Under the pieces are notes generated by a model. That model was given only the letters and a program-made list of their open reading frames with translations. It searched no databases and had not been told where the DNA came from. The position numbers were made by a program, and so were the translations under genes. A DNA stretch of 39,936 bases from assembly GCA_947176765.1 (NCBI GenBank), contig CAMWRX010000019.1:1-39936 (forward strand), written 5' to 3'. Origin of the DNA: an uncultured bacterium. GTDB taxonomy: Bacteria; Bacillota; Clostridia; Oscillospirales; Oscillospiraceae. Positions 1,926-36,284 of the stretch are shown piece after piece; position 1 is the first letter of the stretch, and every line of letters starts with the position of its first letter.

Positions 1926-2022
1926 TCCATCCGCTCGTTTCAGCGTATGGGTCTGTGCCGAAAAACCATCCGCCCCATCCTCCATATTGGAGGCGGGACA
2001 GGGCAAAACGAACTTCCCTCAG

Positions 2023-2517: not shown

Positions 2518-2529
2518 CCCGCGCTCTCC

Positions 2530-2880: not shown

Positions 2881-2916
2881 ACTCTTCTCCTCCTATCCAA
2901 AATTGGCCCGACGGGA

Positions 2917-4479
2917 TCACAGACCGGGGGCAATCCACATATTCCGGGTCAGCCCTTGACCGCACAGCGCCAGCTGGGCGGGGTAGATCTGCTTCCAGCT
3001 CGCGTACAGCTCGTCGTACACCGCCTTGACAGAGGCATCAGGCTGGTACACCCGGTCCCACTTCACCGTGCACTCCACCGCCTCCTCCAGGCTGGCGTAC
3101 AGCCCCACGCCCACGCCCGCCAGGATGGCCGCGCCCAGGGCGGTGGCCTCTTTCACCACGGGCACCTTCACCGGCTTGCCGGTGACATCCGCCACAATCT
3201 GGCTCCACAGCGGGCTTTTGGCCGCGCCGCCGGCGAAGATCAGCTCCTCCGGCTCGTGGCCGGTGGCCTCCTTCACCAGCTCGATGTGGCTGCGCACCAG
3301 CAGGGCGGTGTTCTCCAGGATGGCCCGGTAGAAGGTGTATTTGTTGAACTTCTCCGGCTCCAGCAGGAAATTGGTGAAGGTGGGGCTGGCGTGCCGCCAG
3401 TCGATGAAGTTCATGGTGTCGCTGAAGCAGCACTGCATCCCGTAGGATCCGGCGGGGATGTCGCGGGCCTTCTCGTTCATCAGGTCGTAGGGGTCCCGGC
3501 CCGTACGCTTGGCCTCCTCCACCTCCGCCTGGCAGAAGCCATCCCGGAACCAGCGCATCACCAGCCCGGGCTTGAAGGCCAGAGCCTCGTACTGCCACAG
3601 GTTGGGCACCGCGGCGCAGTTCACCCGCACCCGGCAGCCCGGGTCGGTCTTGCCCGAGTCGGTGTTGAACTCGTACTGCCAGAAGCTGCCGCCGAACACG
3701 GCGGCCTGGTTGGCCTTATAAGCGCCCACACCCAGCGTGCCCAGCTGGCAGTCGCCGCCGCCCACCACCACGGGGGTGCCCTCCAGCAGCCCGGTGTCGG
3801 AGGCTCCCTTGGCGTTCACCTGGGCGAAATTAGCGCCGCACTCCACTACAGGGGGGAAGATGTCGGCGCGTAGGCCGCACTTTTCCGCAATCTCCGGCAG
3901 CCAGTCCCGGCTTTGCAGATCCATGATACCGGTGGTGCTGCCGTTGCTGGGCTCCACCGCCAGCTTGCCGGTGAGCTTGTAGATGAGCCAATCGTTGAAC
4001 ATCCCCACCGTGGCGGTCTTTTCATACACCTCGGGCAGATTGTCCCGTACCCAGAGGATCCGGGGCAGCGCCCCCAGGGCATAGGTCTGGCCCGACTTTA
4101 AGTAAACTTCCTTCTCCAGCGCGGGATCCAGCTCCTTGAGCTGGGCCACCTGGGCATCGCTGCGGGCGTCCACGTTGGCGCAGGCCCAGATCTCGTTCCC
4201 GTCCTTATCGTAGAGCAGGATGCCCTCCCGCATACAGGTGGTGGACACGGCGGCGATGTCGGCGGGGGCGATGCCCGTCTCCTCCAGCACGCCCCGGACA
4301 CAGCCCCGGGCCAGCTCCCAGTTGTGCACCCAGTCAAAGTCCATGCTGCCCGGCCAGCGCGGATCCTCCCGGTGGGACCACTCCTGCTGGACGCAGCCCA
4401 CCTGCTCGCCGTCCAGGGAAAAAACCACTGCCCGGACGCTGCCGGTGCCGGCGTCCACTGCCATCAGGTATTTCGCCAT
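2917..4479 (-). CDS. lsrK: Autoinducer-2 kinase LsrK (FGGY family)
   Basis: The protein has 520 residues; E. coli LsrK has about 530. It phosphorylates imported AI-2 (DPD) at C5, trapping it inside and producing the LsrR inducer. The FGGY-kinase N-lobe begins YLMAVDAGTGSVRAVVF (phosphate-binding DxGT). Blocks recalled as shared with E. coli LsrK include MREG, IWACANVDAR, GTPVVVGGGDCQLG, MRWFRD, the ATP-site region FAGGAAKSPLWSQI, VPVVKEATALG and the extreme end WIAPGL. These identify it as LsrK rather than a generic xylulokinase. The start is fixed by AGGAGG eight bases upstream. It follows lsrR with a 55-bp gap and is read with it. Confidence 0.93.
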   Translation of the reverse strand: MAKYLMAVDAGTGSVRAVVFSLDGEQVGCVQQEWSHREDPRWPGSMDFDWVHNWELARGCVRGVLEETGIAPADIAAVSTTCMREGILLYDKDGNEIWACANVDARSDAQVAQLKELDPALEKEVYLKSGQTYALGALPRILWVRDNLPEVYEKTATVGMFNDWLIYKLTGKLAVEPSNGSTTGIMDLQSRDWLPEIAEKCGLRADIFPPVVECGANFAQVNAKGASDTGLLEGTPVVVGGGDCQLGTLGVGAYKANQAAVFGGSFWQYEFNTDSGKTDPGCRVRVNCAAVPNLWQYEALAFKPGLVMRWFRDGFCQAEVEEAKRTGRDPYDLMNEKARDIPAGSYGMQCCFSDTMNFIDWRHASPTFTNFLLEPEKFNKYTFYRAILENTALLVRSHIELVKEATGHEPEELIFAGGAAKSPLWSQIVADVTGKPVKVPVVKEATALGAAILAGVGVGLYASLEEAVECTVKWDRVYQPDASVKAVYDELYASWKQIYPAQLALCGQGLTRNMWIAPGL

Positions 4480-16976: not shown

Positions 16977-18821
16977 ATGACGAAAAAAGAGGAAGCCCTG
17001 TTCCAGTCACGGCTGGCCCGGCATTTGGACGAGCTGCGTTGGCTGTACATGGAGCTGTACGGCAATGATTCCATGTTCGACGAGCTGTGCGATGAGATGC
17101 GCCGCTTCGCGGACGAGCGCCCCGCGGCGCTGAAAAAGCGGGATCTGGCGCGGGAAGCTGACCCGGAATGGTATAAATCCAATGAGTTGGCCGGCATGAT
17201 GCTGTATATCGACAACTTCGCCGGGGATTTGAACGGCGTGCGCAAAAAGCTGTCCTACATCGAAAAAGCCGGCGTGAACCTCATCCACCTCATGCCCTTC
17301 CTGGACACCGTCCCCGGCCGGAGCGACGGCGGCTACGCCGTGGCCGACTTCCGGGCGGTGCGGCCCGACCTGGGCACCATGGACGACCTAGAGAAGCTCA
17401 CCGCCGCCTGCCACAAAAAGGGCGTCAACGTGTGCATGGATTTCGTGATGAACCACACCAGCCAGGACCACGAGTGGGCGAAAAAAGCCCGGGCCGGGGA
17501 CGAGGAGTATATGAGCCGCTACTTCTTTTTCGCCGACCCGGCCATCCCCCAGGAGTACGAGAAAACCGTGCCCCAGGTGTTCCCCACCACGGCCCCCGGC
17601 AACTTTACCTGGCTTGACGACTGCCAGCACTACGTCATGACCTCCTTCTACCCCTACCAGTGGGATCTGAACTACCGCAACCCCAGGGTGTTCAACGAGA
17701 TGATGTACAATTTCCTGTTCCTGGCCAACAAGGGCATGGACATGATCCGCATCGACGCGGTGCCCTACATCTGGAAGGAGCTGGGCACCGACTGCCGCAA
17801 CCTGCCCCAGGTCCACACCATTGTGCGCATGATGCGCATGATCGGCGAGATCGTCTGCCCCAGCGTTATTCTGCTGGGCGAGGTGGTGATGGAGCCGGTC
17901 AAAGTGGTGCCCTACTTCGGCACCGTGGAAAAGCCGGAGTGCCATCTGCTCTACAATGTGACCACCATGTGCACCACCTGGCACACCGTGGCCACCCGGG
18001 ACACCCGCCTGCTGCGCAGGCAGCTGGACATTGTGAGCGCCCTGCCCAAGCAGTATGTATTCCTCAACTACCTGCGCTGTCACGACGACATCGGCTGGGG
18101 TTTGGACTACGACACGCTGGCCCGGTGGGGCATGACCGAGGTCCCCCACAAAAAGTTCCTCAGCGACTGGTTCCAGGGCCATGTGGAGGGCAGCGTCAGC
18201 CGGGGCGAACTGTATAATGACGACCCCGCCAGCGGCGACGCCCGCCAGTGCGGCACCACCGCCAGCCTGTGCGGCATCGAAAAGGCCGGGTCTGAGGGCG
18301 ACGCGGACGCCATGGACCGGGCGGTGCGGTTTGACCTCACCCTCCACGCCATGATGTTCATGCAGATGGGCATCCCCCTGCTGTACAGCGGGGACGAGAT
18401 CGCCCAAGTGAACGACTACAGCTATAAGGACGACCCAAACAAGGCGGACGACAGCCGCTATCTGCACCGGGGAAAAATGCGCTGGGACTTGGCGGAGCAC
18501 ACGGACGACCTGGCCACCCCAGAGGGGCGGGTGTTCTGCGGGCTGAACACTTTGGGGGGCCTGCGCAAGGTCAACCCCGCCTTCGGCGCGGCGGCAGACG
18601 TATGGACACTGGACACCGGGGACGACGGCGTGCTGGCCATCGGGCGGTACTTCGACGGCCAGAAGGTCATTGGCGTGTTCAACTTCACCGGGGAGGAGAA
18701 GTCCGTCACCTTCCCCTATGACGAAGGCGAGTTCACCGACCTGCTCACCGGGGAGAAGTACGTGCTGGAAAACCTGCCCGTCCCAGCCTATGGCTTCTAC
18801 TATCTGGAACAAAGTATTTAA
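16977..18821 (+). CDS. GH13 subfamily 4 enzyme (amylosucrase / sucrose hydrolase type)
   Basis: The ATG at 16977 has GAGGTG upstream and gives 614 residues; Neisseria amylosucrase has 636. The N-terminal helical region (about 1-75) and barrel (about 85-510) follow amylosucrase order. Matching blocks are SDGGYAV, DFVMNHTSQDHEW, FYPYQWDLNY and DPNKADDSRYLHR. The nucleophile D260 is in IRIDAV, the acid/base E302 in LLGEVV and the transition-state D370 in RCHDDIGW. Amylosucrases use the energy of unphosphorylated sucrose to build alpha-1,4-glucan; relatives simply hydrolyse it. It has no signal peptide, so it is cytoplasmic. Finding it behind a PTS instead of a GH32 sucrose-6-phosphate hydrolase is unusual. 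Confidence 0.88.
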   Translation: MTKKEEALFQSRLARHLDELRWLYMELYGNDSMFDELCDEMRRFADERPAALKKRDLAREADPEWYKSNELAGMMLYIDNFAGDLNGVRKKLSYIEKAGVNLIHLMPFLDTVPGRSDGGYAVADFRAVRPDLGTMDDLEKLTAACHKKGVNVCMDFVMNHTSQDHEWAKKARAGDEEYMSRYFFFADPAIPQEYEKTVPQVFPTTAPGNFTWLDDCQHYVMTSFYPYQWDLNYRNPRVFNEMMYNFLFLANKGMDMIRIDAVPYIWKELGTDCRNLPQVHTIVRMMRMIGEIVCPSVILLGEVVMEPVKVVPYFGTVEKPECHLLYNVTTMCTTWHTVATRDTRLLRRQLDIVSALPKQYVFLNYLRCHDDIGWGLDYDTLARWGMTEVPHKKFLSDWFQGHVEGSVSRGELYNDDPASGDARQCGTTASLCGIEKAGSEGDADAMDRAVRFDLTLHAMMFMQMGIPLLYSGDEIAQVNDYSYKDDPNKADDSRYLHRGKMRWDLAEHTDDLATPEGRVFCGLNTLGGLRKVNPAFGAAADVWTLDTGDDGVLAIGRYFDGQKVIGVFNFTGEEKSVTFPYDEGEFTDLLTGEKYVLENLPVPAYGFYYLEQSI

Positions 18822-18923
18822 TCTATTCCCCGGGCCTGCCAAATGGTACAGTATGGATAAATCTATGCAGACGACTTGCTTCCGGGCCGCATACGATGGA
18901 TTCCGTGCGGTGCCCAAAAAAGC

Positions 18924-18947
18924 GTTTCGATTTCCGAAACTTTTTCC
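18924..18947 (+). terminator. Probable terminator of the sugar operon
   Basis: GTTTCG (18924-18929), ATTTC, CGAAAC (18935-18940), then TTTTT (18941-18945). The stem is short but the T run is good. It lies just before the next promoter. Confidence 0.55.
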
Positions 18948-18955
18948 GTTTCGTA

Positions 18956-18984
18956 TTGCATTTTCCAGCGAGGTTATATATAAT
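18956..18984 (+). promoter_or_regulatory. Promoter of the riboswitch-adhesin transcript
   Basis: TTGCAT (18956-18961), 17 bp, consensus TATAAT (18979-18984). Transcription should start near 18991, making a leader of about 546 nt before the adhesin start codon. Confidence 0.75.
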
Positions 18985-18990
18985 AATACT

Positions 18991-19116
18991 AAAGACTCAG
19001 GGGTCTTTGTTCGTGCTGAAGGGCGGCATGAACAAAAATGTTCCGAACGGAGGGGGGATGCGTATGATCGACGGCCCGCCGCGCGACGCGCCTTAGGGCG
19101 GCGGATGACACATAAG
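18991..19116 (+). other. First part of the adhesin leader: hairpins and a possible leader peptide
   Basis: A small hairpin AAAGAC/GTCTTT (18991-18996, 19003-19008) begins the transcript. A very G-rich ribosome binding site (19049-19057) precedes ATGs at 19058 and 19064, which open a 10-12 codon frame ending TAG at 19094. The frame overlaps a GC hairpin CCGCCGC (19076-19082) with GCGGCGG (19098-19104). A translated leader peptide is possible but unproven. Confidence 0.35.
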
Positions 19117-19223
19117 ACGCAGTAGCAAACCATCGGAAACGATGGGGCGCCAAGCCAGAGGCTGTCGGACGGTCGCTTTCGCGAAACACGGGCCCGTCCT
19201 ACGCTCGTTCGGCTGCACTGTGT
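19117..19223 (+). promoter_or_regulatory. c-di-GMP-I (GEMM) riboswitch aptamer, copy 1
   Basis: The core GCAAACC starts at 19125. P1b is CCATCG-GAAA-CGATGG with the GNRA tetraloop. The P2 closing strand AGCC pairs with GGCT (19211-19214), and the outer helix ACGCAGT (19117-19123) pairs with ACTGTGT (19217-19223). The base equivalent to Vc2 G20 is G, which favours c-di-GMP over cGAMP. The usual GGGACGCAAAGCC segment reads GGGGCGCCAAGCC, so this copy is the most diverged and may bind less well. P2 carries GGACGG/CCGTCC. Confidence 0.85.
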
Positions 19224-19237
19224 AACCCCCAAGGGGG

Positions 19238-19338
19238 AGACTGGCAAACCATTGGAAACAATGGGACGCAAAGCCAGAGGCTGTCGGGCAGGCTTCCGCG
19301 AAATGCGGGGCTAAGCCCTATGCTCGTTCGGCTGCATA
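19238..19338 (+). promoter_or_regulatory. c-di-GMP-I (GEMM) riboswitch aptamer, copy 2
   Basis: The core GCAAACC is at 19244-19250. P1b is CCATTG-GAAA-CAATGG, followed by canonical GGGACGCAAAGCC. The P2 closing pair is AGCC with GGCT (19330-19333); the distal P2 stem GGGC/GCCC carries a further CCGC/GCGG hairpin. The G20 equivalent is G. It is separated from copy 1 by a short linker containing CCCCCAAGGGGG. Confidence 0.92.
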
Positions 19339-19413
19339 CGCAAACCATGGGAAACTGTGGGACGCAAAACCAGAGGCTAAAACGCGCCTGCGCGTCATGC
19401 TCGATCGGTTGCA
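19337..19413 (+). promoter_or_regulatory. c-di-GMP-I (GEMM) riboswitch aptamer, copy 3
   Basis: The core GCAAACC is at 19340-19346. P1b is CCATGG-GAAA-CTGTGG, with wobble pairs. Then comes GGGACGCAAAACC, and P2 is closed by AACC with GGTT (19407-19410), a compensatory change against copies 1 and 2. The distal P2 is ACGCGC/GCGCGT. Only six bases separate it from the closing strand of copy 2. The G20 equivalent is G. Confidence 0.9.
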
Positions 19414-19491
19414 TCGCAAACCACGGGAAACCGTGGGACGCAAAACCAGAGGCTAAGGGGCCTCTGTGCCCTATGCCCGTTCGGTTGCCGG
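19414..19491 (+). promoter_or_regulatory. c-di-GMP-I (GEMM) riboswitch aptamer, copy 4
   Basis: The core GCAAACC is at 19416-19422. P1b is CCACGG-GAAA-CCGTGG, then GGGACGCAAAACC. P2 is closed by AACC with GGTT (19483-19486); the distal P2 is AGGGGC with GCCCT. The G20 equivalent is G. Five bases separate it from copy 3. It is the aptamer nearest the adhesin ribosome binding site. Confidence 0.9.
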
Positions 19492-19539
19492 ACTTCTTTG
19501 CGTCCGAGCAAAACCGCAAAGAAAGGAAGAAGTGTAGTG
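19489..19539 (+). promoter_or_regulatory. Probable expression platform controlling translation of the adhesin
   Basis: Directly after copy 4, ACTTCTTT (19492-19499) can pair with the Shine-Dalgarno region GGAAGAAGT (19525-19533). The same bases can instead form TTCTTTGCG (19494-19502) with CGCAAAGAA (19515-19523), or sit in the loop of CGGAC (19489-19493) with GTCCG (19502-19506). No T run follows, so translational rather than transcriptional control is more likely. Confidence 0.5.
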
Positions 19540-22500
19540 AAAAACATGAAGAATTTGTGCAAGCACGGCCTTTTCATGCCGCTGCTGGCCCTGGTTCTCT
19601 GCATGGGTCTGGCCTCCACCCCCGCGTTTGCGGCGGACGTGGACGGGACTGAGAACCCGGCCTCCTCCATTGAGAACGTCGAGGGCCAGGAGACCAACGG
19701 CAGCGACGAGTCCTACGTGGACAACGACAACGAGGCGTCTGGCGAGGACAACGACTCCGACACCCCCGTAGGCGACACCACCGAGGACGGCGAAGAACCC
19801 AGCGAGGGCAGCGACGTCGAAATCGGCGACAGCCAGGAGCCCGGCGAGGGCGGCGACGTCGAGACCGGCGACAGCCAGGAACCCAGCGAGGGCGGCGACG
19901 TCGAAACCGGCGACAGCCAAGAGCCCCTCGTGTGCACCTGCACCACAAAGTGCGGCGACACTGCCAACGAGGCGTGCGAAGTGTGCGCCGCCGGTGGCGA
20001 GTGCAAAGCTACGAGCAGCGGCGTCACTTGGGACGCCGAGACGGGGACCCTGACGGTCACCGGCAGCGGCGAGGCGCTAAATGCCGCCAACCTGACGGTG
20101 AACGGCGAGGCGGTCACAAACCTGAAGCCCAACCATCTGGTGATCGACGGGTTCAGCACGGTCGGCAGCGACTTTAAAGGAATGGCCGACGGGCTGAAAA
20201 GCCTGGAAATCAACAATGTTGGCACAGTTGGGGATCAGGCGTTCAGCTACCTCTACAACGTGGATCTGAAAATCACCGTCAGCAACAGCAAGTTGGATAA
20301 CTGGGCGTTCTGGAAGAGTGCGGTGTCCGAGATCGTGCTGGACAACGTCGACGCCGGTTACGGTTCTGTCGGTGGACTTGGTGCCTATGACCCGAGCGAT
20401 CCGAAGGTGAAGCTCAGCGTCAGGGGCGGTCATCTGAGCGGGAGCGCGCTCATGAGCAGCAAGCTGTCCGAGCTTGAGCTGGAGGGCATCGACATCACCG
20501 ATTCCCCCTTCTCCGGGACCACCGCTGATATGGTCACCGTCACGGACGGCAAGCTGGGGACCAATGCGTTCAGCGGCTTCACGGTGTATGATCAGCTTGT
20601 GCTGAACAACGTCACCGTTGATAACTGGAACTATCCTTTCAACGGGTTCGGCGGCAGCGACCTGGATGTTACCATCAACGGCGGCAACTTCGGGACGTGG
20701 GCGTTCTATGGATCCAGCGCCAATAAGGTCACCGTCAACGGCAGTAACTTGGGCGACTCCTCGTTCCAAGGCTGCACGATGTCCGAGCTGGAGCTGAACA
20801 ACGTCGACATCGCCGACAATATGCACCCCTTCTATGAGGCCAGCAGCAACAAGGTCACCGTCAATGGCGGCAGCGCCGGAACGTACGCGTTCTGGAAGAC
20901 CACGATGTCCGAGATCGAGCTAAACAACACCACCGTTTCCAACGGCGCGTTCTATCAGGCCAACACCAACGATAAGGGCCTGAATGTCACTGCCACCAAC
21001 AGCAATCTGTCCGAGGATGCCCTCAACGACGTCAATGTGGGCCGCTATGTGAAGGACGGCGTGATCGTCAAGGCGACCACTGATTCCCTGCAAGACCTCA
21101 TCAACAAGTCCGAAGGCCCCACCAAGCTGGTCATCAGCGGTGTCATCCACAGCACGGGCAATTCCATTCGCATCGCCGCGGGCAAGGACATCACCCTGGT
21201 CACCAACGGGGAAGACGCCAGCATCGAGGCTCCCAACGAATTCAACGACTCCCTGTTCGTCATCGAGAACGGCGGCAAGCTGACCATCGACGACGACAAG
21301 CTCACCATCAAGGGCGCGGCCGAGGGCAAAACGGTAGACAGCAATTCCGAGTCGGCCCTGGTGTTCCAGGTCAGCGGCGAGCTGGTCCTGAACAACGGCA
21401 CCATCATCGGCGGCGGCTCCGGCCTGGATAACTCCAAGGGCGCGGTCGTGCTGAAGGATGGCGCGAAGTTCACCATGACCGGCGGCACCATCCGCGACAC
21501 CAAGCTTTATACCTGGTACAGCGCCCCCGTGGTGGTAGGTTCCGGCGCCGAGTTCATCATGAAGGGCGGCAAGATCACCAATAACCGCAATAACCTGGGC
21601 GCCGGCGGCGTTGCGATCGTCGGTTGGTACCACAACGATCCGTCTGCCACGATGAAGCTGACTGGCGACGCGGAGATCAGCAACAACGTGACATACAAGG
21701 ATGCCGGCGGAATTGCCCTGTGGGGCAATGCCGATCTGTACATGAACGGCGGTAAGATCATCGGCAACACGTCGCACTGGGGCTACGGCGGCGGCATCTC
21801 TGTGGCGGGCCGCACCGGTGATATGATCGGTGTAAACAAATATTATGACCCCAAGTGCGTGTTCACCATGGACGGCGGCGAGATTTCCGGCAACTACGCA
21901 GTTTACGGCGGCGGCATCTATGTCAATTCCAACGATGTGACGCTGAATGCCGGCTTGATTGCCGACAACACCGCAAGCGAGACCGGCGGCGGCGTGTATG
22001 TGGAGACCCCCGAGGACAACTCCGACGCCAACTTCACCTCCGCCCATCTGTCCAACGCCGTGATCCACGGCAACAGCGCGACCCTCATGGGCGGCGGTAT
22101 GTACTTCTGCCCCACCGGCTCCAGCGAGCAGTACGTCAACGAAGGCCCGGCCATCTTTGACAACAAGGCTGACGGCGCCGCGGATGACCTCGTGTCCGTT
22201 GTGCTCGTGGGCTTTGGCGAGGCCGAGGATGGGAAGTTTGCTGACCTGACTGAGCGTATGCTTGGCGGCGGCAAGGTGGACTGGTACCTCGATGGCAGCG
22301 TGTTTGAGAACTATGCCAGCGGCCAGGGCCGGGTCGAGGAAGATTCTGTGCGCTATAATGCCGAGACCTATGCCAAGCTGGTGGCGTCCGGTCGGTACAC
22401 CACGAACATCGCCGTGAAGGCGGTCGTGTCCGATGAGGCGAAGGAACTGGCGCTGGCCAGCGCTAAGCTGGTCATCACCGGCAACAAGGCCACTCGCGGC

Positions 22501-23103
22501 GGCGGCGTGGGTTCCAACGGCAATGTGACCGCTGGCAACGCCGAGGCCCCCGAGTACGAGCTGACCGTCAACAAGGTTTGGGCGAACGTCCCCCAGAACG
22601 AGCAGAAGGACGTCGTCATCCAGCTGGTCATTGACGGCGTTAAGCTGGACACCGTGGTGCTGAATGCCGAGAACGGCTGGAGCGCCAGCTTCACTGGCCT
22701 GCCCGAGGACGTGAAGGATAAGCTCGCAGTTCTGGAGCAGACCGAAGGCTACGATGTCAGCTATTCTGAGGTCACCGGCGAGGACGGCGCGACGACCCTG
22801 TCCGTCACCGTCACCAACTCCCTCACCCCCACGACCCCGGATCCCGATCCCGATCCTGATCCCGATCCCGATCCTGATCCCGAGCCCCCCGCTCCCGAGG
22901 TGGACATCCCCGACGAGGAGCCGCCCCTGTCCGAGAAGCCCGACGAGGAGCCCGACGTGGAAATCCCCGATGTGGAGGTTCCCCTGAGCAACGTGCCCCA
23001 GACCGGCGACAACTCCGGCATTTGGTACGTTCTGGCGGTTCTGTCCGTCTCTGGCCTGGCTGTTCTGGCGCTCGTTGACAAGCGCAAGGAGCAGGAGGGC
23101 TAA
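19537..23103 (+). CDS. Large wall-anchored adhesin-like protein under c-di-GMP riboswitch control
   Basis: The GTG at 19537 lies seven bases after GGAAG and gives 1188 residues; ATG at 19546 is a less well placed alternative. A signal peptide ends near AFA. Residues about 40-130 are acidic, with three 14-residue repeats, then a cysteine cluster (CTCTTKCG, CEVCAAGGEC). Residues about 208-500 are beta-rich repeats of the BspA/LRR_5 style (DNWAFWKSAVSEIVLDNV). Residues about 515-830 look like a right-handed beta-helix (FTMTGGTIRDT, GGGIYV). A CnaB-like domain spans about 1007-1092, then an Asp-Pro repeat and a Pro/Glu-rich linker. The sorting signal is NVPQTGD (1152-1158), a membrane helix and a KRKEQEG tail. 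It probably binds a surface or host ligand; the ligand is unknown. Confidence 0.88.
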   Translation: MKNMKNLCKHGLFMPLLALVLCMGLASTPAFAADVDGTENPASSIENVEGQETNGSDESYVDNDNEASGEDNDSDTPVGDTTEDGEEPSEGSDVEIGDSQEPGEGGDVETGDSQEPSEGGDVETGDSQEPLVCTCTTKCGDTANEACEVCAAGGECKATSSGVTWDAETGTLTVTGSGEALNAANLTVNGEAVTNLKPNHLVIDGFSTVGSDFKGMADGLKSLEINNVGTVGDQAFSYLYNVDLKITVSNSKLDNWAFWKSAVSEIVLDNVDAGYGSVGGLGAYDPSDPKVKLSVRGGHLSGSALMSSKLSELELEGIDITDSPFSGTTADMVTVTDGKLGTNAFSGFTVYDQLVLNNVTVDNWNYPFNGFGGSDLDVTINGGNFGTWAFYGSSANKVTVNGSNLGDSSFQGCTMSELELNNVDIADNMHPFYEASSNKVTVNGGSAGTYAFWKTTMSEIELNNTTVSNGAFYQANTNDKGLNVTATNSNLSEDALNDVNVGRYVKDGVIVKATTDSLQDLINKSEGPTKLVISGVIHSTGNSIRIAAGKDITLVTNGEDASIEAPNEFNDSLFVIENGGKLTIDDDKLTIKGAAEGKTVDSNSESALVFQVSGELVLNNGTIIGGGSGLDNSKGAVVLKDGAKFTMTGGTIRDTKLYTWYSAPVVVGSGAEFIMKGGKITNNRNNLGAGGVAIVGWYHNDPSATMKLTGDAEISNNVTYKDAGGIALWGNADLYMNGGKIIGNTSHWGYGGGISVAGRTGDMIGVNKYYDPKCVFTMDGGEISGNYAVYGGGIYVNSNDVTLNAGLIADNTASETGGGVYVETPEDNSDANFTSAHLSNAVIHGNSATLMGGGMYFCPTGSSEQYVNEGPAIFDNKADGAADDLVSVVLVGFGEAEDGKFADLTERMLGGGKVDWYLDGSVFENYASGQGRVEEDSVRYNAETYAKLVASGRYTTNIAVKAVVSDEAKELALASAKLVITGNKATRGGGVGSNGNVTAGNAEAPEYELTVNKVWANVPQNEQKDVVIQLVIDGVKLDTVVLNAENGWSASFTGLPEDVKDKLAVLEQTEGYDVSYSEVTGEDGATTLSVTVTNSLTPTTPDPDPDPDPDPDPDPEPPAPEVDIPDEEPPLSEKPDEEPDVEIPDVEVPLSNVPQTGDNSGIWYVLAVLSVSGLAVLALVDKRKEQEG
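19804..19929 (+). repeat. Three tandem 42-bp coding repeats
   Basis: Units begin at 19804, 19846 and 19888, each encoding a 14-residue acidic segment of the type EGGDVETGDSQEPS. They are nearly identical in DNA, so copy number is likely to vary between strains. Confidence 0.85.
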
Positions 23104-23117
23104 TCCCCAGCAGCAGC

Positions 23118-23153
23118 GGATGGCCAGGGTTTCATGCCCTGGCCATCCTTTTT
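23118..23153 (+). terminator. Intrinsic terminator between adhesin and sortase
   Basis: Perfect 12-bp stem GGATGGCCAGGG (23118-23129) and CCCTGGCCATCC (23137-23148), seven-base loop, then TTTTT. The sortase start follows only 20 bases later, so the sortase depends on readthrough unless an unseen promoter exists. Confidence 0.9.
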
Positions 23154-23172
23154 CAAGAAGATGGGTGATGTG

Positions 23173-24006
23173 ATGAAAAAGAAACTGCGTCTGATCTTAA
23201 CCGTCGCTTTGGCCGGAGTGCTTGCCGTCAGCCTGACGGCGATTGTGCGCGTGCAGCTGCAATACCGGGAAAACGCGGCGTCTTACGAGGACGCGGCCCG
23301 GGTGGCGCGGTTTGAACCGCCCAAACCGGCCGCGGAGCAGTCCGCCCGGCCCGGGCCGACCGATGAGGGCCCGGACACCGGAGAGGCGGCAGACGACCCC
23401 CTGCGGAAAGCGCTGGAGGCCATTGACCTCGCCGCGCTCCAGGCGGTCAATCCCGACGTCGTTGGATGGATTTGTATCCCCGATACCCAGCTGTCCTACC
23501 CGCTGCTTTATGGGACGGACAATTCTTTTTATTTAACACATACCTGGAATCGGGCCTACAACGGCGGCGGCTCCATCTTTATTGACTGCCGCTGTTCCCC
23601 CGGCCTGGACACATTTCACACGGTCATATACGGCCACCGAATGAACAACGACTCCATGTTTGGAACGTTGAAATATTATAGAAATCAGGATTTCTGGCAG
23701 GAGCACCCCACAATTTACCTTGTGGACAACTCCGGCGTACATCTCTATGATATTTTTGCGGCCTGGGAAGCCGGCGTCACCAGCATTGTCTATGAGATGG
23801 ACCTGAGTACACCCCAGCGGCAGCAGGAATTTCTGGACACGTGCCTGGCTGCAAACTGTTTGGACACCGGCATTACGCCCGACACAGGGGATCGGTTCCT
23901 GACCCTCTCCACCTGCACCGGGAGCGGCGGACACGCCACCCGCTGGGTGGTTCACGGCGTGTTGACGCAGACCTATGACATCTCCGAGGCGGAGCCGTCC
24001 CCATGA
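23173..24006 (+). CDS. Class B sortase
   Basis: About 277 residues from the ATG at 23173; ATG 23161 is an alternative, and neither has a strong ribosome binding site. An N-terminal signal anchor (KLRLILTVALAGVLAVSLTA) is followed by a low-complexity linker. The sortase domain runs from about residue 80: YPLLYGTDNSFYL, catalytic histidine in VIYGHRMNNDSMFG, catalytic cysteine in FLTLSTCTGSGG and arginine in HATRWVVHG. The TLSTC motif and the extra helix region mark class B. It presumably anchors the adjacent adhesin through its VPQTG signal. Membrane-bound, facing outward. Confidence 0.9.
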   Translation: MKKKLRLILTVALAGVLAVSLTAIVRVQLQYRENAASYEDAARVARFEPPKPAAEQSARPGPTDEGPDTGEAADDPLRKALEAIDLAALQAVNPDVVGWICIPDTQLSYPLLYGTDNSFYLTHTWNRAYNGGGSIFIDCRCSPGLDTFHTVIYGHRMNNDSMFGTLKYYRNQDFWQEHPTIYLVDNSGVHLYDIFAAWEAGVTSIVYEMDLSTPQRQQEFLDTCLAANCLDTGITPDTGDRFLTLSTCTGSGGHATRWVVHGVLTQTYDISEAEPSP

Positions 24007-27512: not shown

Positions 27513-28037
27513 TCAGTTCAGAAGCTTGTTTCCCTGTTCGCAGATTTCATATATTTCGTCATATTTCCGTTCCACCAGCTCTGCCACCAGCTTGGAGCGG
27601 CGAGCGACTATTTTACGATAGATGAACCAAGGAAGTATCCACCCCAGGAACCCCGGGATTGCCAGGATTACGGACAGTACCACCAACGGCGGGACGTGGG
27701 TCACGGCAAAGACAGACCCGGCCATAAAGGCGGTCCCAATCAGCCCCACGATCAAAGCGGCAATGGTTCCATTCGTTGTTTTGGAGCGCTCCAATGCGGC
27801 AATCTCATCCATACACGCCTCAAAGTGGCGCTGCAAGCGGGTCAACTCCGCTTTGTTCATGATCTTCCGTTCCCGCTTCAGCACCAGCTTCCCTTTCCCG
27901 GTTTCCATCCGTTCGTCCGGCGCCCAGCCGAAGCTCTGATAGCAGTCCAGATAAAAGGAGGCCCGCTCCCCGCTGGCGGTGAGTTCCTTGTACTCATATC
28001 CAATGTAATCCTTGCCGTCCTTTTTGATCTCGCTCAT
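27513..28037 (-). CDS. Two-TM membrane protein, last gene of the two-component operon
   Basis: The protein has 174 residues; its ATG overlaps the kinase stop (ATGA) and GAAGGGAA lies upstream. The layout is that of its paralogue at 25389-25925: soluble N-terminus with GYEYKELT and SFGWAPDE, a basic helix ending LTRLQRHFEA, two membrane helices (IGTAFMAGSVFAVTHV, LAIPGFLGWILPWFIY) and a tail with ERKYDEIYEICEQG. Translational coupling to the kinase suggests it modulates or is sensed by the two-component system. Function unknown. Confidence 0.75.
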   Translation of the reverse strand: MSEIKKDGKDYIGYEYKELTASGERASFYLDCYQSFGWAPDERMETGKGKLVLKRERKIMNKAELTRLQRHFEACMDEIAALERSKTTNGTIAALIVGLIGTAFMAGSVFAVTHVPPLVVLSVILAIPGFLGWILPWFIYRKIVARRSKLVAELVERKYDEIYEICEQGNKLLN

Positions 28038-29119
28038 TGAATATTCCCTTCTTTCGCTGCTGGTATTTTTACAGTAAATGTACTGCCTTTGCCGGGGGTG
28101 CTGGTGACGGAAATATCCCCGCCCAGCATCCGCAGGATGCGCAGCACCAGCGCCAGACCCAGACCGTTGCCCTCTGTGGAATGGGAGGTGTCGCCCTGGT
28201 AGAACTTGTCGAAGATATGCTCCAGCGTTCCTGAGTCCATGCCGCAGCCGGTGTCGGATACCTCCACCACCACCTCGTCTGCCGTGGAGGTCTGCCGGAG
28301 CGTGACCGTCCCGCCCGGTTCGGTGAACTTGATGGCGTTGGACAGCAGATTATTCCACACCAACTCCAGCAGGCTGGCGTCTGCTTCAATGGTGGCCTGA
28401 TCCTCGATGTCCGCCTCAAATTCGATCCCCTTTTTCTCCCAGCGGTCCTCAAACAGCAGCGCGCACTCCGCCAGCTGCTCACATAGATCATAAGGCTCCG
28501 GAACGGGCTGGATGTTCTGCTTTTCCAGCTTGTTCAGCTTCAGAATGTTGGTAATCAGGCCGTTCAGCCGCCGGGATGAGCGAGCGATGGTGTCCACATA
28601 TTCCATCCGTTCCTCCTCCGGGAGGGTCGGGCTTTTCAACATATCTGCAGAATTTTGAATGACTGCCAACGGCGTTTTGATCTCGTGGGAGACGTTGGAG
28701 AAGAAGTCGGTTTTCAGCGTCTCGATGCTGCCCAGCTCCGCCACCATTTTGTTGAAGTCCTGAATCATAGCGTCCAGGTAGTCTACCTTATCCGCAGCGT
28801 GGATGGCGGGAACAAACACGGAAAAATCTCCATTGGCTACCTGTCGGTTGGCCTCCGCCAGCATTTGCATAGGCCGCTCATAGGTGTTTCGGATGATCCA
28901 CATGGAGAACAGGGTCAGCCCGGCGGACACCAGCGCCCAATACACGATGGGCACGATTGGCTGCACCCATTCGTTCCATTGGAGAGTGTTCATCAGCACA
29001 ATCAGCCCTACATGAACGCCGGAGGCCAAAAGCATCCCGCCGAAAATCACGCCAAACAGCAGCAACGGGAAACGGCTGGAGCGGACCGGTCCCCATGGAT
29101 GCCGGCTCTCCCGCTTCAT
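28034..29119 (-). CDS. Membrane sensor histidine kinase
   Basis: The protein has 361 residues. Two TM helices near residues 15-38 and 50-72 leave almost no outside loop, so the signal is probably sensed in the membrane or through a partner protein. A HAMP domain (RPMQMLAEANRQVANGDFSV) follows. The DHp helix contains the phospho-accepting histidine in FFSNVSHEIKTPLAV. ATPase boxes are N (WNNLLSNAIKFTE), G1 (VSDTGCGMD), F (IFDKFYQGD) and G2 (GNGLGLAL). It overlaps the response regulator gene by ATGA. Its membrane partners are likely the proteins encoded on either side. Confidence 0.92.
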   Translation of the reverse strand: MKRESRHPWGPVRSSRFPLLLFGVIFGGMLLASGVHVGLIVLMNTLQWNEWVQPIVPIVYWALVSAGLTLFSMWIIRNTYERPMQMLAEANRQVANGDFSVFVPAIHAADKVDYLDAMIQDFNKMVAELGSIETLKTDFFSNVSHEIKTPLAVIQNSADMLKSPTLPEEERMEYVDTIARSSRRLNGLITNILKLNKLEKQNIQPVPEPYDLCEQLAECALLFEDRWEKKGIEFEADIEDQATIEADASLLELVWNNLLSNAIKFTEPGGTVTLRQTSTADEVVVEVSDTGCGMDSGTLEHIFDKFYQGDTSHSTEGNGLGLALVLRILRMLGGDISVTSTPGKGSTFTVKIPAAKEGNIQ

Positions 29120-29787
29120 TTCAGCACCGCCTTGTAGCCCAGGCCCCGCACTGTTTTGATCTCAAAGCCGTCGCAGTCTGAGAATTTGTCCCGCAGTTTG
29201 GTGATGTACACGTCCACCGCCCGCAGGCTGGTCTCGCTGTCCACACCCCAGAACTCGTCCATAAGCTGGGCGCGGGAGAAAGTCTTTTTCGGGTAGGACA
29301 GCAGCTTGTAGAGGATGTTGAACTCCCGGGTGGTAACAGGCAGCTCCTCGCCGTCCACCTCCGCCGTCATGCCGTCCGCATCCAGCACCAGGTTGCCCAC
29401 GGTGATCTTCCGCTCCATCTCGATGTTGGCCCGGCGCAGCAGGGCCCGCACCCGGAGCTGCAGCTCGTCCAGCTCGAAGGGCTTCACCATGTAGTCGTCG
29501 ATGCCCAGCTGGAAGCCCTTCTGTTTGGCGGGCAGGTCGTCCCGGGCGGACATGAACAGGATGGGGATATGCTTGTTCACCTGCCGGACGGCCTGGGCAA
29601 ACTCGAAGCCGTCCACCTCCGGCATCATGATATCCGAGATGATAAGGTCGTACAGGCTGTTGTACATCTCGTCGTAGGCGTCATTGGCGTTCAGACAGCC
29701 CTTCGTCTCAAAGCCGCAGTCGCTGAGATAGGTACACACCAGCTGGTTCAGCTTGGCATCATCCTCTACTACTAAAATATGGATCAT
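29116..29787 (-). CDS. OmpR/VanR-family response regulator
   Basis: The protein has 223 residues. The receiver domain has the acidic pair in VVEDD, phospho-acceptor D52 in LIISDIMMP, the conserved Ser in LFMSARDD and the conserved Lys in MVKPFE. The C-terminal winged helix has VTTREFNILYKLLSYPKK, the recognition region SLRAVDVYITKLRDKF and the wing TVRGLGYK. Regulators of this family bind direct repeats with 11-bp spacing. Five promoters here have exactly such repeats, including the one in front of this operon, so autoregulation is likely. Starts overlap on both sides (ATGA). Confidence 0.93.
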   Translation of the reverse strand: MIHILVVEDDAKLNQLVCTYLSDCGFETKGCLNANDAYDEMYNSLYDLIISDIMMPEVDGFEFAQAVRQVNKHIPILFMSARDDLPAKQKGFQLGIDDYMVKPFELDELQLRVRALLRRANIEMERKITVGNLVLDADGMTAEVDGEELPVTTREFNILYKLLSYPKKTFSRAQLMDEFWGVDSETSLRAVDVYITKLRDKFSDCDGFEIKTVRGLGYKAVLK

Positions 29788-30680
29788 CGTTTGGTTCCTC
29801 CTCTTTCATCAGGTTTCAATTCCATGAGTATCTTCCTTGATCTTCTTACCATGTAAACTGCGCTACCCAGTACGGTGACGCAGACCGCAAAAGCGGTGCA
29901 GGATGTCATAATCAGCCGGAACTGCGGCTGGTCCGCGCCGAATTGGGCAATCAGCGCCGTCTCCAGGGAAAACATGGATACCAGCGCTGTGGTCAGGTTG
30001 ACCGCCTTAGCGGCGGACAGCACCGGGCTGTTGAACCTACGATACTTGATTGCGTTGATGATTGCAAGGGCCAAGCTGTAAAAAGCGTAGCACGCCATCG
30101 CATAGACCAATGTTCCGGGGTAAAGGTAGCCGTTGCCTCTCAATACGATCATCGTGGAAATAACAGCCAGCGCCGCGTCCAGCAGGAACAGGAGCCGGCC
30201 CGTCATTCGATACCGCCGCCATTCTTCCCGATCACTGAACCGCTTTTGCCCTTTTGGAAAACTTGCAAGGAGATAGAGCCGCACCACGCACAGCAGCATA
30301 TTGTAGATTGCCAGTCCTCCCTCCCAAAAGGAGGAATACAGCACCGCATAGGCCAGCTTCAGCATGGCAAAGCCCAGGTTAATAATAAAAGAAAGGGCAA
30401 GCCCATACCACACAGAAAAATATTTGTCAGTCATATAGCGGTGGGCCAGGGGGATGCTGTGCAGGAAGCGCGGCGCCTGTCGGAGCGCCGGCACAATAGC
30501 GGCCACAAATATGGTCAGTCCATAGGCGGACAGGCAGTAGGCTGCATAGGGAAAGGGGGTCTCTCTCAGCCTCGTCCCAAAAGCCAGAAACAGGGCAGCG
30601 GCACTGAGAAGCACCATCAGGATGGCCCATCGACCACCCGGCCAGAGCAGCTTTTTCAGAATGGCTTTCCAGCGTTCCAT
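29784..30680 (-). CDS. Polytopic membrane protein heading the two-component operon
   Basis: About 298 residues from ATG 30680, eight bases after GGGAGGA. The longer frame from 30710 would start inside the -10 box. About eight hydrophobic segments are visible, including GRWAILMVLLSAAALFLAF and YAAYCLSAYGLTIFVAAIVP. The basic tail is MVRRSRKILMELKP. No family recognised. Being first in the operon and coupled to a kinase without a sensor loop, it may be the sensor module or transport partner. Confidence 0.75.
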   Translation of the reverse strand: MERWKAILKKLLWPGGRWAILMVLLSAAALFLAFGTRLRETPFPYAAYCLSAYGLTIFVAAIVPALRQAPRFLHSIPLAHRYMTDKYFSVWYGLALSFIINLGFAMLKLAYAVLYSSFWEGGLAIYNMLLCVVRLYLLASFPKGQKRFSDREEWRRYRMTGRLLFLLDAALAVISTMIVLRGNGYLYPGTLVYAMACYAFYSLALAIINAIKYRRFNSPVLSAAKAVNLTTALVSMFSLETALIAQFGADQPQFRLIMTSCTAFAVCVTVLGSAVYMVRRSRKILMELKPDERGGTKR

Positions 30681-30705
30681 AACCCATCCTCCCTTCACTG
30701 GACAG

Positions 30706-30750
30706 AGCATAGCACCGGCAGGTTTGCGTTTTGTTATAGAATTGTTTGAG
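30706..30750 (-). promoter_or_regulatory. Response-regulator-type promoter D (two-component operon)
   Basis: Minus strand: CTCAAACAATT, CTATAACAAAA, CGCAAACCTGC (30750-30718), six bases (CGGTGC), then TATGCT (30711-30706). Start predicted near 30699, just before the ribosome binding site. Suggests autoregulation. Confidence 0.75.
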
Positions 30751-33949: not shown

Positions 33950-34273
33950 GTGAAAATATCTGAGTACAAAAGTTACGATGACCTGCCGCTGTTCCTCAAC
34001 GCGGCAACGGTGGCAAAGGTGCTGGGCGTGTCGCCGTCCAGCGGTTATGAGTTGATGCATGTCGTCGGCACAAGCTCCGCATTCCTCGCTTCCGGCCAAG
34101 GCCAAAAGCTCGTCCGCTCCACTGTGCCTCCTCTCCCCACAAAGCCAAAGGACGGCTTTGCGGGGACCCCTTTGGATTTCCCTGTGCTCAAAGTGGGCAG
34201 CCGGATGGTGGTTCCCAAGGAAAAATTTGTGGAACGGGTGGAACAGCACACCAGTGGAGGTAGTCGCCGGTGA
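33950..34273 (+). CDS. Small HTH (excisionase-like) protein with an internal insertion
   Basis: GTG start at 33950 after AAAGGAAAAG gives 107 residues. The first part (KISEYKSYDDLPLFLNAATV, AKVLGVSPSSGYELMH) and last part (DFPVLKVGSRMVVPKEKFVE) form a MerR/excisionase-type winged HTH, normally continuous in about 65-70 residues. Here about 38 residues (34062-34175) are inserted between the recognition helix and the wing, in frame, including a DNA hairpin CAAAGCC/GGCTTTG. The fold is probably broken or altered. The stop overlaps the next start (GTGA). Confidence 0.65.
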   Translation: MKISEYKSYDDLPLFLNAATVAKVLGVSPSSGYELMHVVGTSSAFLASGQGQKLVRSTVPPLPTKPKDGFAGTPLDFPVLKVGSRMVVPKEKFVERVEQHTSGGSRR

Positions 34274-34965
34274 GAAAATACACTCCGCTCATAGGGTGGC
34301 CCAAGCGTGATCCACGCCACTATCGCTTCCCACTGCCCAATGCGGTATGGGAATATAAACTCAAACCCATTGAGTTTGTGATCCTGTCCTATCTCTGCTG
34401 TCAGCACTCCCATGGTGGTGCGAATCTATCTCCAGAGGTGATCGCGAAGGGCGTCCACATGACAATGGTCACGGTGAAAAAGTATCTGGTCAGTCTGGTT
34501 GGTAAAGGGCTCATCACCAATGAGTACACTCCCACTTTCCAATGCGCTGACAGCAGAAAGTTTTTCACCCTGCCGAACGAAATCTTTCTGCTGAGCCTTC
34601 CGTCCTCTGCGTTCATGGTCTACGCCTATCTCCTGCTGATTGAGGATCGCAGGACGCACACCTGCCATCCCAGCTACAACACTATCGCCGCCGAGACAGG
34701 CATGACCAAGAACACCGTGATGAAAAATATCAGCGCCCTTCTGGATGCTGGGCTCATCACGATGGAGCACAGCAACTATTTCGACAAATGCGGAATGAAG
34801 TGGAAGGGCAACAATCTCTACACAATCCTGCCGGCACAGATAGCAGCGGATCAATTCCACCAGCGGCAGCTCCACCAATTGGAGCTGGATGCGGAGCGCA
34901 GGCGTGTCCGAAAGCGGCAGGAGCGCTTTGCCCGTGACCGCCCCCATGCGGCCCCGAGACCATGA
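34270..34965 (+). CDS. Replication-initiator-like double winged-HTH protein
   Basis: GTG start at 34270 with GGAGG nine bases upstream; 231 residues. Two winged-helix modules are visible: LKPIEFVILSYLCCQHSHGG to TVKKYLVSLVGKGLITNEY, and SSAFMVYAYLLLIEDRRTHT to NTVMKNISALLDAGLITME. A basic Arg-rich tail follows. This layout is that of plasmid/ICE RepA-N or DnaD-like initiators seen next to excisionase-like genes in clostridial elements. No relaxase follows, so the element core is incomplete. Coupled to the HTH gene by overlap. Confidence 0.65.
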   Translation: MRKYTPLIGWPKRDPRHYRFPLPNAVWEYKLKPIEFVILSYLCCQHSHGGANLSPEVIAKGVHMTMVTVKKYLVSLVGKGLITNEYTPTFQCADSRKFFTLPNEIFLLSLPSSAFMVYAYLLLIEDRRTHTCHPSYNTIAAETGMTKNTVMKNISALLDAGLITMEHSNYFDKCGMKWKGNNLYTILPAQIAADQFHQRQLHQLELDAERRRVRKRQERFARDRPHAAPRP

Positions 34966-35042
34966 AGGCCCCTGTTTCGCGTTGTAAGGCCGTTTGTGCC
35001 CATCCTAGGCGGCACCATTTTCTAATACAGTTGGAGGAATTT

Positions 35043-36284
35043 ATGGAGTACCTTGCAAAGCATCCTAATGGGAATCTGTCTAATGAGCCATTTTTAATCA
35101 CAAACGATAATATCAGGAAGATGTATGAAGAAAATTTGCGTGATGCTTACGAATGTGATCGGGTCACTGAAAGTACGCGACGAGGAGAATCCTATTATGC
35201 CAATGACGGCAGACCCGGAGACGAAAAAATTAACCATTCTCGTTTGGAGTTTTTCAAAGAAGTTCTCTATCGTGACGCAAAGACCTCCGGTTTTGTAATG
35301 GGATGTCCACATGGAACGGTAATTATGCAGGGAGAAAGGGAAAGCTATTATCGCGGTGAGAAGCAGATCTACCCGCAGAGTGGAACCACGCTGAGCAGGC
35401 CGCTTGCAAACCTCTCCTCTGAGAAAGACAGGCTGTTGTATCGACTCGTTGCAGATATGCGTATCGCTGAGTTTGATGATTTCCTCCGAAAATTCAATCG
35501 AACACAATGCTGGGAGAAAAACGGCCTGACAATATTGTCTGATCCGTTGGCGCAACACTATGGTTTAGAAACTGATTGGCTGGATATCACAAATGATTTC
35601 AATGTTGCGCTGTTTTTTGCCAATTGCTACTGGGATCACAGGACAAAGAAATGGTATCCGTTGACGAAAAAGCAGACTGAACTAAATGCTCAGACCCAAT
35701 ATGGCGTAATTTTTCACGCACCAGCAAGGAACGTGATGTTAGAAAATATGATCAAAAGCACATCAGGCAGTGATGAGGGCATGATTCTTCCAATTGGCTA
35801 CCAGCCGTTTATGCGCTGCCACAGCCAGTACGGATATGGGATGCATATGAAAACATCGATCCCGCTCCAGAACAATCCAACCTTTGAAAAGCTTTATTTC
35901 CGTCACAATGAAAAATTGTCAAAGGATATTTATGAATTGATGGATTGTGGCAGAAAGATATATCCCGAAGAAGGTCTCGATGATTTTCAGGATATTATTG
36001 ACTTGATTATCCATACAACAGTCTTTTCCGAAGCATCTTTCTTGTCTGCTCTTCAAAAGAACAATCTGTCTTCCCAGGCCGACAGCTACAGGCTGGAATT
36101 AGAAAAAAGCAGCATATGCTCGACCCCCATTCGCATCTGCGGTGAACAACATCCCTATAAGGTGTCTCGACAGCGAGTACGGCGGGCAAACAGGAAAGAT
36201 GACGGGTTTTCAATTGAAGAAAACTATGGCATACAGCTTGGAACAAGATATGTATATCTTCCACCTTCAAGCGTTAGTGTTTGA
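35043..36284 (+). CDS. FRG-domain protein
   Basis: About 413 residues from ATG 35043, five bases after GGAGG; the longer frame starting 34962 lacks a ribosome binding site. The defining blocks of the FRG domain (PF08867) are present: SYYRGEKQIYPQSGTTLSRP near residues 101-120 and DPLAQHYGLETDWLDITNDF near 168-187, followed by NVALFFAN. The domain is named for its F/Y-R-G motif; its biochemical function is not established. The gene is clearly AT-richer than its neighbours, suggesting separate acquisition. As cargo beside a Rep-like gene it could be a defence or toxin gene; this is speculation. Confidence 0.8.
   Translation: MEYLAKHPNGNLSNEPFLITNDNIRKMYEENLRDAYECDRVTESTRRGESYYANDGRPGDEKINHSRLEFFKEVLYRDAKTSGFVMGCPHGTVIMQGERESYYRGEKQIYPQSGTTLSRPLANLSSEKDRLLYRLVADMRIAEFDDFLRKFNRTQCWEKNGLTILSDPLAQHYGLETDWLDITNDFNVALFFANCYWDHRTKKWYPLTKKQTELNAQTQYGVIFHAPARNVMLENMIKSTSGSDEGMILPIGYQPFMRCHSQYGYGMHMKTSIPLQNNPTFEKLYFRHNEKLSKDIYELMDCGRKIYPEEGLDDFQDIIDLIIHTTVFSEASFLSALQKNNLSSQADSYRLELEKSSICSTPIRICGEQHPYKVSRQRVRRANRKDDGFSIEENYGIQLGTRYVYLPPSSVSV

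What the first reader, a model, noticed from the sequence alone, without database searches (positions are those of the whole stretch)
19117..19491. Four c-di-GMP-I riboswitch aptamers in tandem before one adhesin gene
Four GEMM-I aptamers lie in about 375 nt. Each has GCAAACC, a GAAA-capped P1b and the ACGCAAA-type segment (degenerate in copy 1). Compensatory changes support real RNA helices: the P1b stem sequence differs in every copy yet still pairs, and the P2 closing pair is AGCC/GGCT in copies 1-2 but AACC/GGTT in copies 3-4. Tandem pairs and a few triples of this class are known; a quadruple array with only 5-6 nt between copies 2, 3 and 4 is unusual. It could give a very steep or multi-input response to c-di-GMP.
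Basis: partly seen in the sequence, partly recalled or inferred. Interest (0 to 1): 0.93.

Follow-up and report, generated by a model that had tools for sequence, protein, structure and literature searches.

The report
Four-sensor c-di-GMP riboswitch array
A gut-type bacterium puts four RNA sensors for the signal molecule c-di-GMP, three of them nearly fused, in front of a surface-protein gene, and relatives use two to five such sensors that lead into one shared, conserved piece of RNA at the ribosome binding site.

Summary
All four copies score above the RF01051 cut-off (38.4, 52.3, 51.2, 63.7 bits) and their helices covary across relatives. The gene behind them is a BspA-repeat/Cna_B protein with a VPQTG sorting signal, followed by a sortase. 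The array is not a one-off: 79 sources hold 84 arrays, 7 of them quadruple and 2 quintuple, and a quadruple precedes the same surface protein in four species. The unexpected part is the architecture. Copies 2-4 lie 3 and 2 nt apart, too close for separate P1 helices or expression platforms. In 58 of 60 tight arrays one conserved RNA (CGGA-N-CUUUGC-R-UCCG-N-GCAAAG, then the Shine-Dalgarno) starts right after the last copy. Used as a probe it found four new loci, all directly behind c-di-GMP-I copies. I read this as a c-di-GMP-I subtype in which several aptamers share one translational platform. The papers I could search describe doublets and triplets as independent switches. Copy 1 has lost A47, copies 3-4 have C at position 20, and whether ligand raises or lowers translation is undetermined; folding did not settle it.

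The parts
19075..19104 (+). GC-rich hairpin upstream of copy 1 (stem 19076-19082 with 19098-19104); in relatives its loop pairs with the bases just before position 20 of the first copy
   Evidence: 54 of 60 upstream stretches have such a hairpin (counted by eye); own loop pairing better than permuted in 0 of 5000; weak in the window, -7.3 kcal/mol
19117..19223 (+). P1 helix of copy 1: 19117-19123 with 19217-19223
   Evidence: read by eye
19124..19216 (+). c-di-GMP-I aptamer copy 1, core from position 20 to C92; A at position 20, C in place of A47
   Evidence: RF01051 38.4 bits; core model 73.8 bits
19217..19242 (+). 26-nt spacer with a C-rich/G-rich hairpin between copies 1 and 2
19243..19335 (+). 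aptamer copy 2; G at position 20
   Evidence: RF01051 52.3 bits; core model 81.1 bits
19336..19338 (+). 3-nt linker between copies 2 and 3
19339..19412 (+). aptamer copy 3; C at position 20
   Evidence: RF01051 51.2 bits; core model 76.2 bits
19413..19414 (+). 2-nt linker between copies 3 and 4
19415..19488 (+). aptamer copy 4; C at position 20
   Evidence: RF01051 63.7 bits; core model 85.1 bits
19489..19521 (+). shared expression platform: S1 CGGA 19489-19492 with UCCG 19503-19506; S2 CUUUGC 19496-19501 with GCAAAG 19516-19521
   Evidence: motif in 58 of 60 tight arrays; pairs kept in 98.9% of cells but nearly invariant; probe finds 28 sites, control 0
19497..19505 (+). strand UUUGCGUCC, complementary to GGACGCAAA in the cores of copies 2, 3 and 4 (possible alternative partner)
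   Evidence: longest Watson-Crick run 10, 9, 9 with copies 2, 3, 4; low probability in the folded leader
19522..19529 (+). Shine-Dalgarno sequence AAAGGAAG
   Evidence: sequence; aligned
19537..23103 (+). surface protein, GTG start (aligned with ATG in L048), BspA-type repeats, Cna_B, VPQTG sorting signal
23134..24006 (+). sortase
   Evidence: Pfam Sortase 1.7e-12

Best explanation
This is a multi-aptamer c-di-GMP-I riboswitch: several closely packed aptamers share one expression platform that controls translation of a surface-protein/sortase operon. Shown by comparison: the aptamers are genuine; copies 2-4 are too close for each to have its own P1 or platform; one conserved RNA starts at zero distance after the last copy and ends at the ribosome site; and that RNA goes with tight arrays, rarely with single or widely spaced copies. 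Inferred: the platform strand CUUUGC-R-UCC has two possible partners, either CGGA plus GCAAAG beside the Shine-Dalgarno (S1+S2) or the core GGACGCAAA(G) of an unliganded aptamer. Ligand on the aptamers would remove the second partner and favour S1+S2, which crowds the ribosome site. Because any empty aptamer could capture the strand, the output would depend on how many are occupied. I lean slightly (about 55:45) to ligand lowering translation. The confidence given is for the shared translational platform, not for the toggle or the sign.
For: Aptamers. Spacing: tight arrays have 1-11 nt between cores, widely spaced ones 107-174 nt, with a separate 22-31 nt spacer after the first copy in 14 arrays. 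Platform motif: 58 of 60 tight arrays, 3 of 15 singles, 1 of 9 loose arrays (the last, L034, has a gap misplaced by the model). As a probe: 9 sites in this genome, all directly after c-di-GMP-I copies, and none in the other 393 genomes sampled from the order; 28 sites in 9 of 300 family genomes, reversed control 0, all 9 genomes with RF01051 hits. Four of the 28 sites were new: all four start directly behind a c-di-GMP-I copy, with a second copy 5, 11 and 4 nt upstream in three, and 126 nt by the model (about 10 nt by eye) in L146. Start codon 37-50 nt after C92 in platform-bearing arrays with an open frame. Platform strand against aptamer cores: longest run 7.3 against 5.3 shuffled, 8 or more with some copy in 40 of 60 tight arrays. 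A P1-less c-di-GMP-I aptamer that binds is known (Cd1, PMC9262584). The genome has 2 GGDEF proteins.
Against: The motif was written after seeing the alignments, and many arrays are close relatives. Platform pairs hardly vary: one compensatory change, covariation not significant (39 of 500 shuffles as high). For the toggle: R is A in 21 of 62 platforms and the aptamers do not compensate; in the folded window leader the strand pairs with a core at probability 0.10 or less; forcing the aptamer raises S2 on average (0.51 to 0.65, 47 arrays) but forbidding the core pairs raises it too (0.71), the Shine-Dalgarno stays about equally open (0.71, 0.68, 0.68), and in the window S2 falls (0.36 to 0.15). 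Vc2 needs P1 to bind (PMC9262584), so copies 2-4 may bind weakly. The B. thuringiensis adhesin switch of this class is ON (PMC4933901 abstract).
Confidence: 0.65

Rival explanations
1. Only the last aptamer regulates; the other copies are recombination by-products of a family of near-identical repeats, neutral or merely helpful for folding.
For: Arrays of this genome are alike and several lie near contig ends. Copy 1 lost A47 here and in first copies of L048 and L054. Two singles, L053 and L079, carry the platform and are not obviously cut.
Against: Four copies are kept before the same gene in four species although individual copies were replaced. A47 is kept in the other 147 of 150 aligned copies. 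Last copies are the ones that most often depart from G20.
Confidence: 0.2
2. Same architecture but an ON switch: ligand disfavours the S1+S2 fold and opens the ribosome site, as expected for adhesins.
For: The class I switch on an adhesin in B. thuringiensis is ON (PMC4933901 abstract). In some arrays with 4-5 nt linkers the linker (AUCC, AUUC) could pair with GGAU of the platform as a P1 that excludes S1 (by eye).
Against: With the 2-nt linker of the window that P1 cannot form. Forcing the aptamer fold raises S2 in 24 and lowers it in 9 of 47 arrays, though it lowers it in the window.
Confidence: 0.4
3. Independent tandem riboswitches, each with its own platform, acting pseudo-cooperatively as described for other c-di-GMP-I tandems.
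For: This is the published reading of c-di-GMP-I doublets and triplets (PMC9481103, PMC4759541). Copy 1 has its own P1 and a 26-nt spacer.
Against: 2-3 nt between copies 2, 3 and 4 leave no room for platforms.
Confidence: 0.08
4. A mixed-ligand device: copies with A or C at position 20 sense cGAMP or another cyclic dinucleotide.
For: Position 20 is A, G, C, C in the window; last copies of tight arrays are G in 33 of 60 against 57 of 60 for first copies. A at this position goes with cGAMP binding (PMC9481103 passages; PMC7288161 passages).
Against: The equivalent base is described as a selectivity factor, not a hard filter (PMC9262584). C92 is kept in 149 of 150 aligned copies. Orthologue L039 has G in all four copies.
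Confidence: 0.15

Closest known systems
Tandem c-di-GMP-I riboswitches, e.g. triple Bc3-5 of Bacillus thuringiensis (PMC4759541)
   Same: Same aptamer class, several copies before one transcription unit.
   Different: There each copy is complete, with its own terminator platform (passages); here copies 2-4 are 2-3 nt apart with one platform at the ribosome site, and there are four.
Tandem glycine riboswitch
   Same: Several like aptamers followed by one expression platform (PMC9481103 passages).
   Different: Other ligand class; usually two aptamers; glycine quadruplets there are two complete two-aptamer switches. Cooperative binding is untested here.
Vc2 and Cd1 c-di-GMP-I riboswitches (PMC9262584)
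   Same: Vc2: translational control; Cd1: binds c-di-GMP without P1.
   Different: Single aptamers; no platform of this sequence is described in the parts I saw.
cGAMP-type and UAU/GGC variants of c-di-GMP-I
   Same: Copy 1 has A20; L048 and L054 first copies have G in place of A47; copy 3 drew a weak RF03168 match.
   Different: RF03168 scored 23.3 bits against 65.9; C92 is kept; C20 fits none of the variants as I recall their definitions.

Membership tests
c-di-GMP-I riboswitch (RF01051) | covariance-model score over the curated cut-off | tested here: met
   all four copies over 35 bits; three of four in the clan-resolved cmscan
c-di-GMP-I riboswitch (RF01051) | conserved helices with compensatory changes | tested here: met
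   17 of 21 pairs, 0 of 500 shuffles
c-di-GMP-I riboswitch (RF01051) | ligand contacts G20, A47, C92 (roles from PMC7288161/PMC9262584 passages and recall) | tested here: inconclusive
   C92 in all four; A47 in copies 2-4, C in copy 1; position 20 A, G, C, C
c-di-GMP-I riboswitch (RF01051) | binds c-di-GMP | not testable with these tools
   needs probing
independent (pseudo-cooperative) tandem riboswitches | each copy has its own expression platform | tested here: not met
   gaps of 3 and 2 nt between copies 2-4; copy 1 stands apart by 26 nt
tandem aptamers with one platform (glycine type) | adjacent aptamers followed by a single platform | tested here: met
   one conserved platform directly after the last copy
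tandem aptamers with one platform (glycine type) | cooperative ligand binding | not testable with these tools
   needs binding curves
c-di-GMP-I-UAU (RF03168) | score over its gathering cut-off | tested here: not met
   23.3 bits against 65.9 for copy 3

The most novel reading that the evidence does not exclude
A distinct riboswitch architecture: two to five c-di-GMP-I aptamers, mostly without individual P1 helices, act as one sensor. A shared strand (CUUUGC-R-UCC) is captured either by an unliganded aptamer core or by a mimic of that core split around the ribosome site, so the output counts empty sensors; last copies have drifted at position 20 and add a second threshold or ligand. It is used at many surface-protein genes in gut Oscillospiraceae-like bacteria.
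Probability: 0.3. Interest if true: 0.88.

Novelty: new variant of a known kind. Interest (0 to 1): 0.7.

Why it matters
c-di-GMP riboswitches are normally one sensor, one switch. Two to five aptamers feeding one conserved translational platform would be a natural RNA device of adjustable steepness, used at many surface-protein genes. It makes testable whether packed aptamers bind cooperatively, whether P1-less aptamers work in series, and how these gut bacteria tune their surface by c-di-GMP. The platform sequence is a simple search handle for the subtype.

Tried and rejected
A P1 shared by the whole array (5' flank of the first copy with 3' flank of the last): read by eye; no consistent pairing.

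A terminator platform: the scan found one terminator-like + strand site at the array end, 19479-19493, inside copy 4 and the platform. Relatives have no T-run longer than the CTTT of the motif there. I keep it only as a possible competing hairpin.

Switch direction by folding without pseudoknots: inconclusive. Covariation in the platform: not significant because it hardly varies. Promoter: the scan found none on the + strand of 18800-19560; TTGCAT-17-TATAAT near 18955-18984 is by eye.

Limits of the counts. 'Tight' (smallest gap 11 nt or less) was set after seeing the gaps. Loci were chosen because they had RF01051 hits, so array counts are not frequencies; L088/L089 and L101/L102 are near-identical pairs. 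Two singles (L035, one in L037) lie near contig ends; L057 is cut by a contig end. Alignment A4 holds 150 of 193 matches. One search covers 58 arrays (54 for the core measures) and one search covers 47. One search covers 82 of 84 arrays (45 nt of downstream sequence needed). One search scored 14 candidates a genome and listed a capped set of matches; of its 85 positive genomes I searched 14 again fully, chosen for many or closely spaced hits plus some others.

Full report
Observation. The window is contig C19 of a 2.67-Mb genome in 122 contigs. Between an alpha-amylase-like gene ending at 18821 and a surface-protein gene starting at 19537 lie four c-di-GMP-I aptamers. cmscan gave three over the gathering score; the whole-genome search scored all four over it. 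Counted from position 20 to C92, the gaps are 26, 3 and 2 nt.

The gene. The protein has a signal-peptide-like start, BspA-type repeats (LRR_5, 2.3e-9), a Cna_B domain (6.1e-7) and a C-terminal VPQTG signal with a hydrophobic stretch. A sortase gene follows after 30 nt. 'Adhesin' is a fair label; binding is not shown. Two GGDEF proteins in the genome make c-di-GMP synthesis plausible.

How common arrays are. RF01051 gives 22 hits in this genome, most of them clustered, and hits in 17 of 42 genomes of the genus. I fetched 78 stretches, aligned 37 copies trimmed to the core and built a covariance model. Over the window and the 78 loci it found 193 matches, which group into 84 arrays: 15 single, 40 double, 20 triple, 7 quadruple, 2 quintuple. 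The quintuples are near-identical and lie in one genome of another genus. The window's quadruple is conserved: L039, L048 and L061, from three other species, have four copies before genes with matching N-termini, the leaders align throughout, and the L048 protein is 71% identical.

Architecture. Widely spaced tandem copies are 107-174 nt apart; the tight arrays have 1-11 nt between cores, plus a 22-31 nt spacer after the first copy in 14 arrays. Two or three nucleotides cannot serve as P1 strands for two neighbours or hold a platform. Right after the last C92 comes CGGA-N-CUUUGC-R-UCCG-N-GCAAAG and then the Shine-Dalgarno. The motif is present in 58 of 60 tight arrays, 3 of 15 singles and 1 of 9 loose arrays. 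I wrote it after seeing the alignments, so the fair test is its use as a probe. In 300 genomes of the family it matched 28 times in 9 genomes of 8 genera, with no match to the reversed pattern. Twenty-four of these sites were already held. The other four (L144-L147) lie in four genera other than the window's, three of them not sampled before. Each starts directly behind a c-di-GMP-I copy, with a further copy 5 nt (L144), 11 and again 11 nt (L145, three copies) and 4 nt (L147) upstream; in L146 the model puts the second copy 126 nt away, which by eye is a truncated match and about 10 nt. Among 394 genomes sampled from the order only this genome matched, nine times, each time behind an array or copy already listed. 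A stricter pattern in named contigs gave 27 stretches: 16 from Clostridiales, Oscillospiraceae, Oscillibacter or Lachnospiraceae records and 11 from unrelated bacteria or archaea, which I did not inspect and which may be chance. 'Mgla' in several names probably means bank vole (recalled).

Platform structure. CGGA can pair with UCCG and CUUUGC with GCAAAG, together an H-type pseudoknot. The ten pairs hold in 98.9% of cells, but the region is almost invariant: one compensatory change (CAGA/UCUG in L055), covariation not significant (39 of 500 shuffles as high). The strand CUUUGCGUCC is also complementary to the aptamer core GGACGCAAAG: in the window 10 pairs with copy 2 and 9 each with copies 3 and 4. 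Over 60 tight arrays the longest run with the last copy averages 7.3 against 5.3 for shuffled platforms; 28 of 60 reach 8 with the last copy and 40 of 60 with some copy; the three singles or loose arrays that reach 8 are ones that carry the motif. Against this, R is A in 21 of 62 platforms without compensation in the aptamers. Pseudoknot-free folding of last copy plus platform gives S2 0.53, anti-aptamer 0.24 and S1 0.09 on average; in the whole window leader S2 is 0.69 and anti-aptamer pairing at most 0.10. Forcing the aptamer raises S2 from 0.51 to 0.65 over 47 arrays (up in 24, down in 9), but forbidding the core pairs raises it to 0.71, the Shine-Dalgarno hardly changes, and in the window S2 falls. 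So the toggle is a proposal and the sign is open.

Upstream module. In 54 of 60 upstream stretches (by eye) a GC-rich hairpin precedes the first copy, and its loop can pair with the bases ending just before position 20. Own pairing is better than permuted: -10.9 against -9.7 kcal/mol (sd 0.23) for all 60, -11.2 against -10.1 (sd 0.23) for the 57 with a good stem, 0 of 5000 permutations as good in either case. Relatedness of the arrays inflates this. The window's own version is weak (-7.3), and copy 1 has a 7-bp P1 instead. The four arrays of G110 lack the hairpin.

State of the copies. A47 is lost in copy 1 of the window and in the first copies of L048 and L054, and kept in the other 147 of 150 aligned copies. 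Position 20 is G in 57 of 60 first copies but 33 of 60 last copies of tight arrays (A 16, C 10, U 1; p 4e-7, relatedness not corrected). In the window it is A, G, C, C. Published work calls the equivalent base of Cd1 a selectivity factor and shows that Cd1 binds without P1 while Vc2 does not (PMC9262584, passages and section 21). So P1-less copies can bind, but these have not been shown to.

Comparison with print. PMC9481103 (section 26 and passages) lists 347 doublets and 12 triplets of c-di-GMP-I under pseudo-cooperative systems; its three mentions of quadruplets concern glycine. PMC12452182 (passages) finds c-di-GMP tandems enriched as complete units. PMC4759541 (passages) describes a triple of complete switches. 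Searches for quadruple, quadruplet or four-copy c-di-GMP-I/GEMM riboswitches, for tandem aptamers with an expression platform, and for c-di-GMP riboswitches with Oscillospiraceae returned no paper whose listing describes such arrays (open-access library, no supplements, most hits seen as listings). Tight doublets may be inside the published doublet counts.

Verdict. Real and more than a curiosity: a conserved subtype of c-di-GMP-I riboswitch in which packed aptamers share one translational platform. What four copies gain, and the sign of control, need experiments.

Noticed in passing
contigs behind L030-L051: The arrays precede a family of large secreted or anchored proteins with alike signal peptides (MKKLSKILSVGLSLAMCASMVAPA...), which suggests a genome-wide surface-protein regulon.
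   Followed up: partly
L031 (G000), L062, L086: In the same genus, pairs of copies about 156-166 nt apart lack the platform and run into another leader (C[GA]GAATTTCA...), a second type of c-di-GMP-I leader.
   Followed up: no
window 34962-36284: Protein with an FRG domain next to a DnaD/HTH-like protein (34270-34965), perhaps part of a mobile or defence segment.
   Followed up: no
window 28034-30710 (-): Histidine kinase and response regulator genes side by side with a third gene without a Pfam match.
   Followed up: no
window 37525-39093 (-): Protein with CHAP and SLH domains, a possible cell-wall hydrolase.
   Followed up: no
window 335-1852 (-) and 1903-3873 (+): Two long open frames (505 and 656 aa) without any Pfam match.
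   Followed up: no
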